Assembly (NCBI GenBank): GCA_027574665.1
Contig: CM050656.1
Location: 11,979,501 to 12,043,500, forward strand
DNA from: Rhynochetos jubatus
Taxonomy: Eukaryota > Chordata > Aves > Eurypygiformes > Rhynochetidae
Direction of reading: 5' to 3'
DNA: 64,000 nt
Under the pieces are notes generated by a model. It saw nothing but the letters and a program-made list of their open reading frames with translations, was not told where the DNA came from and searched no databases. How positions within the stretch are numbered: position 1 is the first letter of the stretch; each line of letters begins with the position of its first letter. The translations under genes and the position numbers were made by a program. Below, piece after piece: positions 1-43,710 of the stretch.

Positions 1-573
1 TGGCCCCCGGCCCGCAGGTACACGAGCAGGGGAGCTGCAGATCGCCCCCGACCCCGCTCCCCTCTGACCCCGTCCGGCCCACCCCCTCCCCTCGGTTCCT
101 GAACCGAGGCTTGGGCCCCCCCCCACGGGCCACGCCGTGCCCCCGGCAGGTCCCCGCGGACGCTCAGCAGCAGCTGGCTTGTTGCCTGAGACGAGCTGCC
201 GAGCACATCCCCCTCCGGCTGGGTGGGCTCCCGGCCGGCCAGGGCGCTTTGGGGGGAGGCAGCCTCGGGGCAGGCCGAGGGTGCGCAGCCCACCCACCCC
301 CCCGGTGTCACCCAGCCCCGGTGAACGGAGCCCCGGTCCGGGCACTGACGTGCAGGGAGGCTCAGCCCCGGGCCCGTGCGTGCATGGCCTGGAGCGAAGC
401 CGGTGACGGCAGCCAGAAGGGCAATACAGGCACTGAACTTGGCGGTACATGACTGCATGGTGTGTGGTGTTCCAGTTAAACAACCGATAATGCAAACCCA
501 GCATTTCCATTGTCTAGTTATTCCAATCCTTGCTGTAAATGTGCCACATGAATAAAGTTTGGGGGTAAAGGAG
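1..573 (+). other. ERI3: 3' UTR of a plus-strand gene, probably ERI3
   Basis: This stretch contains no recognisable coding exon, but it ends in a textbook plus-strand mRNA 3' end. An AATAAA lies at 551-556 and a GT-rich downstream element at about 594-609, so cleavage is expected near 570-575. The last 150 bases are AT-richer than their surroundings, as 3' UTRs often are. ERI3 (an ERI1-family 3'-5' exoribonuclease) is proposed only from gene order: in human, as I recall it, ERI3 lies tail-to-tail with DMAP1, and DMAP1 is the next gene here on the opposite strand. No ERI3 protein sequence is visible in the window, so the identity is an inference. The 3'-end call itself is firmer than the gene name. 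Confidence 0.5.
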
Positions 574-2469: not shown

Positions 2470-2546
2470 GGCAGAGCAGCTCCAGCGCTACGACCACGCT
2501 ACGTGCGTTGCACGTAGCGTGGTCGTAGCGCTGGAGCTGCTCTGCC
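2470..2546. repeat. Perfect 37-bp inverted repeat with 3-nt loop
   Basis: The left arm (2470-2506) is exactly the reverse complement of the right arm (2510-2546), separated only by GTT at 2507-2509. No mismatch occurs in 37 pairs, and the symmetry stops abruptly at both ends. A transcript in either direction would fold into a 77-nt hairpin. The arms are GC-rich and not made of simple repeats. A perfect stem with such a tiny loop is atypical of conserved microRNA precursors. It could be a recent fold-back mutation, a template-switch event or an assembly or sequencing artefact. Confidence 0.9.
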
Positions 2547-2984: not shown

Positions 2985-3250
2985 CTGGGCTTTGTGGCTT
3001 TCCTGGGAGAGCCGTGGAATTAACGGGGAAGAGCACATGTGTTTGATAATCTTTATATGGCAAAAGACCCATCTTTCAAATATGTCACAAACCGGTATTA
3101 ATCACCTTCCTATTGCCTTCCGCGGCGCAGCTATTCCCCTCGCCTCGGGCGAAACGGGGAACTGTCTGGTGAAAAAAAAAAAAGATGTTGCACGTTATAA
3201 TTTACAAGAGCCTATGAGTCTAGTTTCTTTTAATGGAAAGGATTAAAAAT
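2985..3250. promoter_or_regulatory. Candidate conserved noncoding element A
   Basis: An AT-richer island inside GC-rich DNA, with clustered short motifs (GTTTGATAATC, AATTAAC, TATTAATC) and no open frame. It contains at 3072-3087 a 16-mer found again at 4957-4972 in a second such island. Conservation cannot be measured here, so the regulatory role is inference. Confidence 0.3.
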
Positions 3251-4799: not shown

Positions 4800-4985
4800 T
4801 AAAATGGTCACAGTGTGAATGTGCTTGACCTTTTGTCTTGGACTAATCTAATTGTGTCGTCTTTGTGTAATCAGCCGGTAAAGGTCAGTGCTGTATTTAA
4901 CATGGGGGCCCTTTAGGTACTGAATTTGCCTTGCAGTGAATTAACTTGATTATATTTCTTTCAAATATGTCAGAGACCAGGTCAG
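4800..4985. promoter_or_regulatory. Candidate conserved noncoding element B
   Basis: An abrupt AT-rich island between two GC-rich segments, with TGACCTTTTG, CTAATCTAATTG and TGAATTAACTTG motifs. It holds the second copy of the 16-mer (4957-4972) shared with element A. The boundaries and motif density resemble vertebrate developmental enhancers. Function is inference. Confidence 0.35.
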
Positions 4986-6155: not shown

Positions 6156-9100
6156 TCAGGGCATCTGCGTCGGAGACCTGAGTGCTCCCTGTTCTGCCCC
6201 CCCGACCTTCCTTCTCACCGAGTTGGGGGTCAGTGGTGCTCCTACTACATCAATGATCTGGTCCTTGGCATCTCCCTTGACCTCCTCGATGCCGAGCCCC
6301 GCCTGGCCGTCCGGGTGGGCGCCTTCCGCACTGAGGGGGCCGATACTACCGGCTTTGGCCAGGGCCTCGTAGCGGTGCCGTAGCATCTGCAGCTCATACT
6401 CGCAGTTGGCAAAGGCTTGCTTCAGCTCATACAGCAGCACCAGGTCACTCCGCAGCTCGTTGAACATCTGCACGATCTCCTCCGTGGGCATGGGGTTGAG
6501 ATCTAGGGAGAAAAAGGGGTTCTGTTCAACACCCAGACCTGTAACCCTACAACGGAAGATCCCTAGGAAGGTCCTGGCCGCCCAGCTGGCTCCCACACAG
6601 GAGGAGCCTGGCTCCCATCCGCGGTTCATTAGCAACCAGCATCCCCGTGGGTCGGAGACCTGAGTTTCCAGGCTGTCCTTTGGCTCTGGCCAAGGACTAA
6701 GGGTGGGCCTGCAAAGCCCAGGACGCGGCAAGGGAAGCACGACGGAGGGCGCAGACCAGCGCAGGCGACTGAACCTTGCTACCCAGCGGGTCCCACGAGG
6801 GAAGCTCAGTCTCGGGAACAAGCCCTCACACGCTGCCGCAGGACAGGAACGCCCCTGCTGTCCCCCACAACCTCCCGAAAGAGGGGTGAACAGGCTGAGC
6901 CCCCTCTTCCGCTCCTCCCAGGGTAGGACTGCGGCAGAGAATTGCTCTGCTGCCGCGACACAGACGTGTTTCAATGCAGACGTGAGCCGCGTGTAGCGGG
7001 GGCTGGCGGATCCCCTCCCCACACCAGGCATCCTGCTGCAGCCCATCACGCGTGCACACGGAGCCAGGAAGCGCTGCGTGTGCCGGAGCAGAGAAGGGCG
7101 AAGCTCCGTGTGTTTCTCCTGATATACAGCAGTGGACCCTGCCCCCAGGGCTGCCCGCAGACCCCTTCCTGCCAGCACTCTGTTCACCCACCCAAAGTCC
7201 AGGTGTGTTTCCACTCTGGGGCGCAGCAGGGCTGGAGCACCAGGAAGCCCTGGAGATATGTGTATTTTGTAAGGCAGGAGTGTGGAAACTGAGCTCTAAG
7301 AAGCACTCGCATCCGTCCCCAAGGCTTCCCTAGCAAGCAAAGACGGCAACTCCCTTAGTTTTAAAGCAGAAAGGGGAAACCACCCTGGTTGAGCTGCTTT
7401 CACCAGCCCCAGGAGACCTTCAGAACTACACACGGTCTCCGAGACAACGTACCGAGCCGTAAACCGGTTGGTCCAAAAACCTAATGCGAGTTAACAGAAG
7501 CCAGTGCTGGGAGCAGGCTCTAATCTCTTGTAAATCTTTTTTTTTTTTCCCCCCCCCTTTTTTTTCTTTTAAAATCCCCCCCAGCCACAGTGGGGGAGAA
7601 CAGGGATCATCAGGCCTCTAATCAAGGGGCACTGCATGCTGGGACCTGTAGTACCTGCAAATTGTACCCACTGCACGGAGGGCAGCAGCTAGCCACGGGC
7701 CGCGCTTCTTCCCCTCTAGCTACGAGCGGGTATTGTACGTGGTAAGTGAACCCTTCTTTCTGCTGCTAAGACACTGGAGTTCAAGAGTGAGGGATGTGTG
7801 TTTACTCGCCTTTCAGCGGAGATGCTCCAGATTTTCACACAGCATGCAACCTATAAGGGGGGGATGAACAGTCCCAGACGCATTTTGGACTTGCCACCGC
7901 GAGCAGTAAATTAAGAGGAAACGAAGCTTGAAAGCAAGACAGGGCAGCCCCGAACAATGCGCGTGCCGTGGTCACTAACACACTTAGAAGTACCTCTCCC
8001 GGCAAGGCTGAGATTTGCCTTCCTAATACTGTGCTGCCTCTCTTGATGTTTAAAAAGGCCCAAACAAGAGAGAAACAAAGGCTCTTTTAAAACATTTTTC
8101 TACTGGGAGGAAAGAAAAAAAAAAAAAAAAGGCCCTGTGCATCTTGTTCTGGCTTTTACCCTCTCTTTCTTTTTTTTTTTTTAAACACATAAAATATTTT
8201 AAAAACCATTCACATACTGTTATTCAAGAAACTGGCTGTATTACTAGGGGAAAAAATAGCCCATCTTGAGAACAAAGGCTAGCTCTGTGTGTCTCTTTCT
8301 CTCTCTCGTGTGCCCCCTTTACTCACCTACTCCGAGTTCCATCAGCATCTGCTCCAGGGCTTTAATCTTCTTCTGTCCCACCGAGCTTGGCAGTTTCATC
8401 TGGAACACAAAGGTAACAGAGCCACACAGCTCAGAGATAGCCCTCACTCACAGCCGTCTAGTTCAAAAGGCGAGAGAGCTTTTCTTTTTATAGTGCAGGG
8501 GGAACAAAAAAAGAAAGGGAGAGAAAGGAAAATCAAGTGGTAAGAGCGGGAGACAGGGGCTGAAAGTTTTCAGACTAGGTCCGAGGGCAGGTATTGAAAA
8601 AGCCCGGTCGCGAGGGCTTTTATTTTCTCTCGCGCGTGTGTGCAAGACACGCTGTTTTACAGTTTCCATGTGTCACTGAATTAACAACAAAAGTTCTTCT
8701 TGGCTTCAAACCCTCTCCCGCGGTGCCCAGCCCATCAAAGGGCTCATTTACACAGCGGCTAATGTGCAATGCTGCCCTACTTTATTCGCTTTAGCCGGCC
8801 TGATTAGACTCATGCGCTAACAGACTCACTTCTCCTTTTACCTGCTGAGCCCCAGACCTGTGGGATTCATTTACAGAGCAAGCTTTATAACAAAGGGGAG
8901 AGACAGAGAGAGCACAGTTACTTGACTGGCGGAAGTGTGAACACACATTTACATCGGAGCTAAGGGGCTAGGTGAGAGAGGAAGCATCAGATGTGAGCTA
9001 TGAAAGGGAAGCGGAGCTGGCCAGGAGAGGAAGAATGCATACACTTAGCAGGGTCCTTCCTCTGCGTTCATTTGGGCTCCAGCAGGAGTGCGAGCTGCTC

Positions 9101-12100
9101 AGACCAAGCGTTTATTAGATTACAAGCAGCACAAACGCAGCTGGCACAATATGGCAGGGAGAACGGGTTTCCAAGCCCTGCGGATATATCCGGCAACAAA
9201 TGAAAGCGCTTTCCTTCCTCTGCAATGCTCCAAGACAGAGCAGGAGAGAAATGACTCGCAACACCTCACCGGAGACAGGCGCGGGCCGTCGCTCCACGTC
9301 CAAGCCTGGGAAGGTGAGCCCCCCCCGCCCGGGCAGTGCTATCCTGACAGCCCACCCGCAGGCTGCTGAACAGCCACGAGGCGAGAGCGCCCATCCTGCG
9401 CACCACTTACCGACCGGTGGCCCCAGCCTCGGCCAAGCCAACCCCGAGACCGCACCACCGGGCTGGGAACGACGTGATGGAAGAGCCGTTCTTTACTCCA
9501 CCTTAAAACCAGCCTCTGAGCTCAAAGGGTCCCGCAGTCACCTCATTTCCCGTAAGCCACAGGCTGAAGTTCCCCAAAGCAGCCCAACGGGAGCCTTCCA
9601 AACGAGGCGCATCTTTTCCGCAGCGTTCGCTGCCCCAACGCAAAACCAAGGGACACCGCGTGGAACTTTGGAATTCCTCTGAAGCACTGCACGTCTATGG
9701 CCGAGTATGTCCCACCAGCTGCTCCACGCCCCCGGTGCAGGATCTGCTGGGAAAACCCACCTCCACCACATCATTTCAGCCAAGAAACCAGAGCACGGAT
9801 GCCACAGAGCACCCGGGGGGGACGGGCCTCTCGCAGTATGTGCCAAGAAGCACCTAGTCCTTCTGCTAGGTGTTGGGATCACAGCTAAGGCTCCAGCAAA
9901 GGACCAAGAGGACTATCAGGAGAGGATTTCTAGGAGACCAACCTGATCCAGGGGATCCAAAAGGAGCACTAGGGAAAGAGGAAAACCCAGCCTCGTGCAA
10001 ACAGCCAGCACTGGCAGGGCCTAGGGGACACCTCTATCCCGTTCTTAAACCACGCCTTTGGCTTAGAGCCGGGCTTTCTGCACAGCAGGAGATTTCATAC
10101 CTCAGAGGCCGAATCTTTACACCTGAACACAAAGCGATTGTTTTAGCAGAAAAAAGGCTATCAGGTATTTGGATTTCAGTAAATTCTTTGGCCCAGAGTC
10201 TTAACTTGAGCAGAACCTCACTAAAACAGGCTTGCACAGGAGCTCCGCGGCACAGACTACCGGCAGCAGCTCCGCTGGAAGGGAGCAGGGCTGGGGAGAG
10301 CCCTAAGACAAGGCAGCAGGAAGCACTGGGACAGGAGATGGTCCATGTTTATCTGGTGGGTGCTGCGCTGCAGCTAGCAGCGGGTGGCCAAGGAAGGAAA
10401 GGTCACTTGGTACAGCTTAGCAGGAGACAGGATGCTTAGCCTGGAGGGTGGGGAAGACATTCCCGAGAGCAAGAGGCCTCAGTCCAGAGAACTGTCACGC
10501 CCCATGAGGAATCACACAGAATATTTAAGATGGGCAGTCCAGAGAACTGTCACGCCCCATGAGGAATCACACAGAATATTTAAGATGGGCAATGCACCCA
10601 GCTCTGTCTCCTCTGGGGGATGCATGGGCTGAGCTAGTCAGGTGGTGCTATCCGTAACTCCTAGGACACAAGGAGTTAGCAGAGCCCAGCACTGAAGAGC
10701 CGTGGACACACAACGTTCACGTGATTATCAGAGCCCCCAGAGTCTGTCTTCACCCCTGCCCCTAACATCAGCATCACCGTCTTTCTAACGAAAGGCAGGA
10801 TTCCCTTCTGGCAAACACCAGCTGGCAAAAGCCTGCTGGACTTCAGGAACAAGGGACAAGACATAGGAAAAGTCCATGCTTGCTAGGCTAGGCGGGCAGA
10901 CAGGAAGCCTTGGTGTCTCGGCTAGAGGAAAAGCACAAGCTCTTCTCCTGAGAGGCTTCCACCCGCTCAAGGAACCACTGGCAACACCAGCGATTAGCCT
11001 GGCAAAGCCTTCAACTGTAACGCTGCGTGCGTCTTGCTCACGTCCCACGGGAGTCCGGTCAACAAATACTGAGGCAAGGCCTTCACTGACACTCCTGAAG
11101 ATCAGAGGATGGAGCAGGGAAAGGCAGGACAAATTAATTTCACTTCAAAGAAAGGAGCACTAGAGATGCTCAGGAGGAGTGGGGCTGTGAGTTTAGTTTA
11201 AAAACACATCAATTAAGCTTCCTTTTAATTCAGGGAGGAGGATCTGGCCTGCAAACAGGAAGGCTTCATTGGTTTCTCAAAGCAAGAGTATATTTTAATT
11301 TTACCATCATTAAGAAAATGTTATGATTTATGTGGCTGCTGTCGGACTAATATCTTTAGAATTTAGCTGGCTAAGCCAATTCATCTCTAAGACTGATGAA
11401 GGCTGATTGCTCTCTATGCAAAATGTATTAAAACTAAATGAGCAGTCTATTACTCAAATGCAGCTGATAATCTGTTAGCCAGGGTCCGTTAGCCGGGCTG
11501 CCTCGGTGCAGGAGAGAAGCCTTCATCCCCTGCACAGCTCTGATAAGCCCACGCTTACTTCAGCAAGCCCTTCTTTGTTCGGTCTTTAGATGTCCAGAGA
11601 TGCATCAGAGCGCTGGAAGCGGCGTATTGCCTGCCCGCATTCCCGAGGAACAAGGCAATCCGCAGGGACCACCGATCCCAGCCCACAGCAGAGAGAAGGG
11701 CTTCTCTGGCTCCCGCCGCGTGCGCTGGGATACGTGGTTTCTGCAGGCCGTATCTCCGTGTTAATGAAAACACCACTCAGGCCAATCTCGTTGCTTACAC
11801 CACGGCTCCTGGGATGCTCTCGGTGTTGTCATGGATCGAGTCCTCCACAGGGGCTGAGGAAAATTATGTTCCTCTGAGAACTCCGGCAAGCCACCACAGC
11901 TTCTGAGGTGAATGGCATTTGCCCTTTTCTTTCCTTCCTCATACTAGACTATTATTGTTATTTATTATCTTTAAAGTCCCCATATAATAATAATACCTGG
12001 GAAACAGATTGCTCCAGTCAGAAAACTGATTAGCCAGGATTTTTGAGGTTACTATATTTTGGATGCTCTTCTCCTTTGACAGCCTCTCCCTACAGCCCTC

Positions 12101-33646: not shown

Positions 33647-33776
33647 CGTGTACGCGCAAACACGCGTAGGTGCGTACATATACGCACGGATATCTACGCA
33701 CGTACACGTGTGTGCGTGCTTATGTATCTATGCATACGCGCACACACGTATGTCTACACACACACCCCCCCTCAGC
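33647..33776. repeat. Alternating purine-pyrimidine (Z-DNA-like) tract
   Basis: About 130 bases are dominated by GT, CG, TA and CA steps (for example TACGCGCAAACACGCG and ATGCATACGCGCACACACG), with few breaks in alternation. It is not a clean microsatellite. It sits about 115-245 bp upstream of the DMAP1 ATG, within the proposed 5' UTR intron. Confidence 0.75.
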
Positions 33777-41392: not shown

Positions 41393-43524
41393 CTGCAGAG
41401 GAGATGGGGTGTCAGTGGGCTTGGAGGTCGGTACCCCTATCCTCCCCTATGCCTTCACCCCAGTGCTCCCCTACACAGCATCCCCTTTTTGGGGGGCGAT
41501 CCCTGCCTACCACCCTTAGTGGAGGGGAACCTCACTGTGTACTTGTCCCCTGCACACCTCTGCCTGACCCACCTTTCCTTTTGTCCCCCCTATCTTCCTG
41601 CCCTTCCCTACGTGATCTATTGTCCCACGTGCCCTGAATGGGGCTTATCCTCTGGGCACCCCTGCCCCACTTCAAATTGTGGGTGCTCCCCTGCCCATCC
41701 CTGCTGTGGGGTCACACCATGTGCCCTGCCGGGGGTCTCACCACACCCCTCCCAGTCCATCTCCTCCTTCCACTTGCCCCCAGCCCAGCTGGGACACTTC
41801 TCCATCTTCCCCCAGGCCCTGCCCCTTCAGACACCCGGGGTCCGGGTGTCATCTCACTGTGTGCCTTGGTCCCCACGTGCCCAGCCCCACCACGGGGGTC
41901 CTTCTGAGCACCCTCGGGAGCATCCCCACTTGCACCCTGCCCCTCCGTGCAGTCCCGTGCCAGTTGTGGGGTCTCTCTCTGGGTGTCCCCACCACGGGGA
42001 CCCTCCATGTGCCCCCGGACTGACCACGTGAGATCTCCACGCGCCCTCGGTGACACCCCACCCCCTCCCCAGCGCCCCTCCCCACCTCCAGGAACCACGC
42101 GTAAGCGGGCTCGCGGGTCTCGCCGCGTGTTGCCCACCCGGGACCCTTCGCGCATCCCTCCCCCGCGTGGCCGCCCTCCCCGACGTTTCCTTACCCGTGT
42201 GGGTCCTCATGTGCGCCTTGAGGTGGGAGCTCTTGGTGTAGGTCTTGCCGCAGCCCGGGTATTCACAGTTGTGCGTGGCCGTCCGCTTCCGCGCCCACGA
42301 GCGACGGCCGCGCTTGGGCTTGCAGTCCTCGGGAGGGGCCCCGGCCGGGAAGTACTCCAGCACCGGGGAGTTGGGCGGCGTGACCAGCAGCCCGGGCAGC
42401 CCCGCCGGGCCCGGCCCCGGCCCCTTCAGGGGCTCCCTGAAAACACTGAAATGTCCATGAAACTGCGGAGGCGGCGGCTGGGGGGCGAAGTGGGGCGCGT
42501 AGCGGTGCGGGGCCACGGCGTAGTGGGGCGGCAGGTCGGCCAGAAGGTGGGGGTCGGCGCCGGACAGCGGCTCCTCGGGGGGACCCAGGCGGCCGTGGGC
42601 AAAGCCCGGGTAAGGCAACGGCGGCCCCGGCACCGGTCCCGGTCCGGGACCCGGCGCCACGCGTGGCTTGTGCTCGCCGCCGCCCGGCCCCAGGTACTCG
42701 GCGGCGGGCATCCCCAGCATGCAGGCGCGCTCCTCCGGCTGCTCCTTCTTGATGCGGGGCCCGAAGGGCTGCGCGGGGTCCAGGGGCAGCGGGCGGGCCA
42801 GAGCCGGGTGCAGAGACGGGTGGTGATGGGACTGATGGTGGTGGTGGTGGCCGCCGGGCACCCGCAGCTCCGTGTACTCCCTCCGTTGCAGGTCGCAGTG
42901 GCCGGGCAGGTCCGGGGTGAGCAGCTCAGCCACGTAGCTGTGGCCCTGGCCCTCGGGGTACGGCGCCGGGAACTTGCCCGGCGTAGGGTAGGAGCCGTCG
43001 CTGTCGTAGGTGGTGCCGCAGCTCTCGGGGGTCTCGGGCAGGGGGTAGTTGGGGCCGGGCGGCCCCTGCCCTCCGCTGCTGGTGTGCGCCAGGATGAAAT
43101 CCAAGTCCACGAACTTGCCCAAGTCGTCCTCCTCCCGCTTGACAGCGGCGGCGCCGTCCTGCTGCAGCATCCTCTGCGGGGAACAGGGGCGTAAGGACCC
43201 GCGGGGCGACGGCTGCGGCGGCGCCCGCCGCTCGGGCACCACGATCCGCGCCTCCCGCTCGGGGCGGCGGCTCCCCCCAACCCGTTCGACGGGTCGGCAC
43301 CGCTCCGGCTGCGCCGCCCCCGGGGCGCCCTCCGACGGCGGAAGGAGGGGCCGCCCCCACCAGTCGGACTGAACCCCAGCCCGGGACGCTCTGCCCTGTA
43401 CCCCACTTGCCGCCCCCTCCCCGGTGCTTACGTGGAGCATGTCGGCTGGCCGCTCCTCTAGCGGCAGCAGGTTGGAGAAAGTAGAGATGGAGGGCAGAGC
43501 GCTCTCATCCACGGCCGCCGCCAT
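41217..43524 (-). CDS. KLF17: KLF17, Krueppel-like zinc-finger transcription factor (spliced gene)
   Basis: Three coding exons, 43524-43432, 43173-42195 and 41392-41217, join in frame to a 415-residue protein. Three C-terminal C2H2 fingers use C334/C339/H352/H356, C364/C369/H382/H386 and C394/C397/H410/H414. A basic KLF-type segment, [18 protein letters not shown], precedes them. Residues 46-60 ([15 protein letters not shown]) match the KLF4 acidic activation motif. [10 protein letters not shown] at 111-120 and LLVTPPNSP near the fingers match KLF2/4 repression-linker motifs. Sumoylation consensus sites occur at VKRE (K43) and IKKE (K173). A His-rich run lies at 140-149. The identity as KLF17 (fish biklf/klf4b, frog neptune) rests on the adjacency to DMAP1, as in human, since KLF2 and KLF4 map elsewhere. 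It would be a nuclear factor binding CACCC/GC boxes. The start has a strong GCCATGG context. An in-frame ATG lies 20 codons upstream. Confidence 0.9.
42195..43173 (-). CDS. KLF17: KLF17 coding exon 2 (activation region to finger 1)
   Basis: Acceptor CCCGCAG and donor ACGG|GTAAGG, phase 1. It carries the activation motif, both sumoylation consensus sites, the His-rich tract, Pro/Gly-rich linker and finger 1. Ending within the HTG linker after finger 1 is the usual KLF2/4 exon boundary. Confidence 0.92.
43432..43524 (-). CDS. KLF17: KLF17 coding exon 1 (residues 1-31)
   Basis: It encodes [20 protein letters not shown] and [11 protein letters not shown], then donor CAC|GTAAGC in phase 0. The LPSISTF motif is shared with KLF2 and KLF4 N-termini (LPSFSTF). 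Confidence 0.88.
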
Positions 43525-43629
43525 GGCGGGCCGGGCTGGGGAACCGGGGCGGGCTGGGGGAGCGCGGTGCGCGGAGCCCGGCACCGCTCCGCTCCCGGCG
43601 GCGGCAGCGCTGCTCTGCCCCGCGCCCCT

Positions 43630-43710
43630 AAGCTGTTAACAGCATGGCTACGCGCCTATTGGCCCTTGTCTTCATTGATATTCACCGCCGCCGCCTCCCA
43701 TTGGCTCTTC
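43630..43710 (-). promoter_or_regulatory. KLF17: KLF17 proximal promoter with two CCAAT boxes
   Basis: On the minus strand, GCCAATAGG (CCAAT at 43662-43658) and GCCAATGGG (CCAAT at 43704-43700) lie 42 bp apart, about 135-180 bp before the ATG. An AT-rich TGAATATCAATG between them contains an ONECUT-like ATCAAT. There is no TATA box. Paired CCAAT boxes at this spacing suit NF-Y binding. Confidence 0.55.

What the first reader, a model, noticed from the sequence alone, without database searches (positions are those of the whole stretch)
2470..2546. Perfect 37-bp stem with a 3-nt loop in intergenic DNA
Arms 2470-2506 and 2510-2546 are exact reverse complements, and symmetry ends sharply at both edges. 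Random DNA does not yield a mismatch-free 37-bp palindrome. No flanking repeat or transposon end is visible. It may be a very recent template-switch inversion, a novel double-stranded RNA source, or a fold-back artefact of sequencing. Each would be informative, since long perfect palindromes are normally unstable in genomes.
Basis: seen in the sequence. Interest (0 to 1): 0.7.

Follow-up and report, generated by a model that had tools for sequence, protein, structure and literature searches.

The report
Likely young template-switch DNA hairpin
A short stretch of single-copy DNA near two ordinary genes appears to have been copied backwards next to itself, making a flawless 37-base-pair hairpin; it is most likely the scar of a recent, well-known kind of replication slip and not a new kind of element.

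Summary
Arms 2470-2506 and 2510-2546 are exact reverse complements around the loop GTT, and the symmetry stops at the first base outside each arm. About 1.2e-10 such hairpins are expected by chance per genome of this size. The next longest perfect hairpin in the window is 14 nt of poly-A; the longest others that are not simple repeats are 12 nt.

The window lies in a 34.9 Mb contig of an unnamed 1.33 Gb assembly with a bird-like spread of contig sizes. A 221-bp query across the hairpin matched only its own place (E up to 0.001), so a dispersed element or a duplicate locus is unlikely. It lies between ERI3 (+) and the part of DMAP1 (-) that could be identified. Rfam gives no match.

A short-range template switch during replication explains it best. 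In 354 kb of the same genome one other perfect hairpin above 20 bp and one decayed hairpin were found; three resampled controls of 264 kb gave none. Which arm is the original, the age, and any RNA product cannot be settled without related genomes, raw reads or small-RNA data. It is a new instance of a known kind, of low interest.

The parts
2470..2506 (+). Left arm of the perfect hairpin, 37 nt, 25 of 37 G+C, 4 CpG
   Evidence: Exact reverse complement of 2510-2546
2507..2509 (.). Loop, GTT
   Evidence: Sequence
2510..2546 (+). Right arm of the perfect hairpin, 37 nt
   Evidence: Exact reverse complement of 2470-2506
551..556 (+). AATAAA in the context AATAAAGTTTG, a possible ERI3 polyadenylation signal, which would put the hairpin about 1.9 kb beyond the end of ERI3; further AATAAA/ATTAAA on the plus strand at 2944, 3242, 3248 and 3309 lie beyond the hairpin and would put it inside a long 3' untranslated region if used
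   Evidence: Motifs only; the ERI3 last coding exon ends 1,090 bases before the window
6219..6512 (-). DMAP1 coding exon, opposite strand to ERI3; ends in PLTPNS followed by GTGAG, a possible splice donor; the final exon was not located
   Evidence: Pfam PF05499, E 1.3e-23, on ORF 6156-7214, residues 235-288; translation; recalled tail probe inconclusive

Best explanation
A short-range template-switch mutation. During replication of this single-copy, G+C-rich stretch a polymerase paused, the nascent 3' end folded back (or switched to the other strand), copied about 37 nt of the adjacent sequence in reverse, and then returned to its own template. This left a perfect inverted repeat around a 3-nt loop. 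A close variant is that an older imperfect inverted repeat at this place was made perfect by such a switch. The event is young enough, or the arms have been re-copied from each other often enough, that no mismatch is seen. Shown here: perfect arms, sharp ends, no second place in the genome, no known RNA family, and other hairpins beyond chance in the same genome. Inferred: the mechanism, the direction of copying and the young age. No function is needed to explain it.
For: Perfect 37/37 arms with a 3-nt loop and abrupt ends. Only its own place matched in the 1.33 Gb assembly. Chance excluded. In 354 kb of the same genome (200 kb adjoining, the window, nine 10-kb samples of other contigs) two perfect hairpins above 20 bp not made of simple repeats were found, this one and a 24-bp one with a 54-nt spacer at L007:8441-8542, plus one decayed 27-bp hairpin with 4 mismatches at window 33655-33716, which sits just at the threshold; three Markov-resampled copies of the 264-kb part gave none. 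Template switches in great apes often leave perfect inverted repeats, with a median copied length of 12 and a maximum of 128 (PMC7954356, passages seen), so 37 is long but within range. New RNA stems consistent with this route are described in PMC8794818 (abstract and one section seen).
Against: No relative was available, so the ancestral state with one arm is not shown. No microhomology beyond chance at the outer junctions: the best alignment of the two boundary regions (15 columns: 13 matches, one mismatch, one gap) was equalled or passed by 645 of 20,000 random flank pairs, and by 1,126 of 20,000 when flanks were limited to 60-90% G+C. The arm is about three times the published median length. 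Nine of nine distant 10-kb samples held no hairpin above the threshold. The window was chosen because of this hairpin, so the background rests on one independent perfect example and one borderline decayed one.
Confidence: 0.85

Rival explanations
1. Assembly or sequencing artefact: a fold-back or consensus error placed a false second arm.
For: Fold-back artefacts exist in long reads (PMC12870357, part 1 of 5 seen). Raw reads were not available.
Against: Those artefacts are of read scale, with the two halves of a read on opposite strands; here unique sequence resumes after 37 bp, inside a 34.9 Mb contig. That a consensus of many reads would not keep a one-read fold-back is inference.
Confidence: 0.06
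2. A functional RNA hairpin: a transcript of either strand gives a perfect 37-bp duplex that is cut by Dicer into small RNAs, or sensed as double-stranded RNA.
For: Very stable fold on both strands. The DMAP1 end was not located, and plus-strand AATAAA/ATTAAA motifs also lie beyond the hairpin, so transcription across the site is possible. MicroRNA loci consistent with birth by template switching are described in PMC8794818 (section seen).
Against: No Rfam match in 64 kb at gathering thresholds. A 3-nt loop and a bulge-free stem are unlike typical microRNA precursors (recalled). AATAAAGTTTG at 551 is a plausible earlier end for ERI3.
Confidence: 0.05
3. A mobile or fold-back element, or the relic of one, inserted with a target duplication (CGGCA at 2469-2473 and at 2549-2553).
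For: A 5-bp direct repeat can be drawn at the outer edges.
Against: Only its own place matched in the genome. The junction similarity that includes this repeat is not beyond chance, and four of the five bases of the left copy belong to the arm.
Confidence: 0.02

Closest known systems
Short-range template-switch mutations (four-point model of Loytynoja and Goldman, as described in PMC7954356 for great apes)
   Same: Perfect inverted repeat from adjacent sequence, small loop, sharp ends, length within the reported range
Novel RNA stems consistent with template switching, such as MIR633 (PMC8794818)
   Same: A perfect stem of the kind said to precede later bulge-making changes
   Different: No evidence of transcription or processing; loop of 3 nt
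Perfect inverted repeats with short spacers catalogued across genomes (PMC13155455)
   Same: Meets that catalogue's definition: arms of 10 or more, spacer of 8 or less, no mismatch
   Different: Longer eukaryotic arms there are disproportionately rich in AT/TA; this arm is 25 of 37 G+C

Membership tests
Template-switch mutation | Reverse-complement copy of adjacent sequence | tested here: met
   37/37 match, 3 nt apart
Template-switch mutation | Ancestral allele with one arm, and a change explained by four switch points | not testable with these tools
   The search tool states that this genome has no relatives there
Template-switch mutation | Source is local and not a dispersed repeat | tested here: met
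   Only its own place matched in 1.33 Gb at E up to 0.001; very common words are skipped
Template-switch mutation | Microhomology at the switch points (recalled as common, not required) | tested here: inconclusive
   645 and 1,126 of 20,000 random flank pairs score as well
MicroRNA precursor | Match to a known family | tested here: not met
   0 matches at gathering score in 64 kb; a new gene would not match either
MicroRNA precursor | Small RNAs with fixed ends from the arms | not testable with these tools
   No RNA data
MITE or fold-back transposon | Multiple dispersed copies | tested here: not met
   One candidate, its own place
Sequencing fold-back artefact | Read-scale palindrome with the two halves of a read on opposite strands | tested here: not met
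   37-bp arms inside a 34.9 Mb contig, other sequence resumes on both sides; raw reads not seen

The most novel reading that the evidence does not exclude
A very young hairpin locus caught before any bulge has formed, transcribed in a long ERI3 3' untranslated region, as read-through, or as part of the DMAP1 transcript, and already yielding small RNAs: a microRNA or short-hairpin gene at birth.
Probability: 0.04. Interest if true: 0.5.

Novelty: new member of a known kind. Interest (0 to 1): 0.15.

Why it matters
It is a clean example of how one replication slip can make a long perfect stem at once. If dated in relatives it could serve as a data point on how fast such stems decay. By itself it changes nothing known.

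Tried and rejected
Chance palindrome: rejected. Known RNA family: no match at gathering thresholds. Dispersed repeat or transposon: only its own place matched. Phage sequence: no match for 401 bases in the phage collection. Coding origin: of 37 open frames of 80 aa or more listed for the first 8 kb, I gave 8 to Pfam, and 1 of 8 matched, DMAP1. Junction microhomology and target duplication: not beyond chance. The last DMAP1 exon was sought with a recalled tail; the best hit (SASSSSSV, minus strand, 2122-2099) was not accepted, since the residues on either side do not fit. Age: with a recalled avian rate of 1.9e-9 per site per year and no re-copying between the arms, no mismatch in 74 bases gives a 95% upper age of about 21 My, or about 7 My with an assumed ten-fold rate at CpG; this is only a guide. 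Papers 10.1073/pnas.2310752120 and 10.1101/gr.214973.116 (ids recalled) are not held. Of eight paper searches, searches found nothing.

Full report
What is there. Window 2470-2546 holds two 37-nt arms that are exact reverse complements around the loop GTT. The first bases outside the arms, C and C, do not pair, so the symmetry ends sharply. With the base composition of the first 6 kb, about 1.2e-10 such hairpins (37 bp or more, loop up to 100 nt) are expected per 1.33 Gb. In the whole window the next longest perfect hairpins are 14 and 13 nt of poly-A; five 12-nt ones not made of simple repeats were seen, against about one expected at 12 or more. The plus strand folds at -95.2 kcal/mol, z -13.8 against 200 shuffles, and the minus strand at -96.3, z -11.4.

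Where it is. The window is C11:11979501-12043500 of an unnamed 1.33 Gb assembly of 148 contigs. Contigs 1, 2, 3, 4, 6, 8, 11, 14, 18 and 20 measure 148.6, 135.8, 126.0, 79.2, 63.6, 42.6, 34.9, 26.0, 22.1 and 18.3 Mb, a bird-like spread; that it is a bird is inference. ERI3 exons lie on the plus strand upstream, and the last coding exon, with a stop codon right after it, ends 1,090 bases before the window (the probe was recalled). A DMAP1 exon lies on the minus strand at 6219-6512 (Pfam PF05499). It ends at a possible splice donor, and the final DMAP1 exon was not found, so a DMAP1 intron or 3' untranslated region could reach the site. AATAAAGTTTG at 551 is a plausible ERI3 polyadenylation signal, which would leave the hairpin about 1.9 kb beyond the gene; but plus-strand AATAAA or ATTAAA also occur at 2944, 3242, 3248 and 3309, and if ERI3 ran to those the hairpin would lie in its 3' untranslated region. 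'Intergenic' is therefore likely, not proven.

What it is not. A 221-bp query covering the hairpin found only its own place in the genome at E up to 0.001, in a search that skips very common words. There is no Rfam match at gathering thresholds in 64 kb and no match for 401 bases in the phage collection. A 5-bp direct repeat (CGGCA) can be drawn at its edges, inside a 15-column similarity of the two outer junctions (13 matches, one mismatch, one gap), but 645 of 20,000 random flank pairs from the same 6 kb, and 1,126 of 20,000 with 60-90% G+C, do as well, so I give it no weight.

Background. I scanned 354 kb of the same genome: 200 kb next to the window (1,162 of these bases masked), the window, and nine 10-kb samples from other contigs. 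At a threshold that three Markov-resampled copies of the 264-kb part never reached, three hairpins not made of simple repeats appear: this one; a perfect 24-bp one with a 54-nt spacer (L007:8441-8542); and, just at the threshold, a 27-bp one with 4 mismatches (window 33655-33716). The nine distant samples gave none; a 13-bp perfect hairpin was seen in L025, below that threshold. So other hairpins beyond chance, one perfect and one decayed, occur near by in this genome, but the one studied is the longest and the count is tiny.

Mechanism. The anatomy fits a short-range template switch: an adjacent stretch copied in reverse by a polymerase that left its template and came back, or an older imperfect repeat made perfect the same way. 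Great-ape events have a median copied length of 12 and a maximum of 128, 65.0% lengthen the sequence, and they often leave perfect inverted repeats (PMC7954356, passages). That such events can create new RNA stems, with microRNA loci among the cases consistent with it, is reported in PMC8794818 (abstract and one section seen). Perfect arms up to 140 bp occur in human (PMC13155455, passage), and a review gives about 180,000 near-perfect human palindromes longer than 40 bp (PMC7999016, passage), so 37-bp arms are no paradox of stability. The lack of mismatches over 74 arm bases, 16 of them in CpG, suggests youth, with an upper age of roughly 7-21 My under recalled or assumed rates, or re-copying between the arms.

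Limits. No relative, read or RNA data could be consulted. The direction of copying, the age and any RNA product remain inference. The genome-wide search for the arm with up to three mismatches did not complete by the server (twelve tries, listed in Tried and rejected). A true background rate would need the whole assembly.

Verdict. The explanation is most likely ordinary: a recent template-switch hairpin, a new instance of a known kind.

Noticed in passing
10480-10591: Tandem duplication of a 55-bp unit, two copies at 100%: another apparently young local duplication in the same window.
   Followed up: no
L007:8441-8542: Second perfect hairpin, about 154 kb upstream on the same contig: 24-bp arms, 54-nt spacer, G+C-rich.
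   Followed up: partly
33655-33716: Imperfect 27-bp hairpin with an 8-nt loop and 4 mismatches.
   Followed up: no
3072-3093 and 4957-4978: A 22-nt stretch repeated directly at 91% (TCTTTCAAATATGTCA...).
   Followed up: no
41857-43635: Minus-strand open frame that contains [23 protein letters not shown], reminiscent of a KLF first exon (KLF17 by recalled synteny; one search gives only the frame).
   Followed up: no
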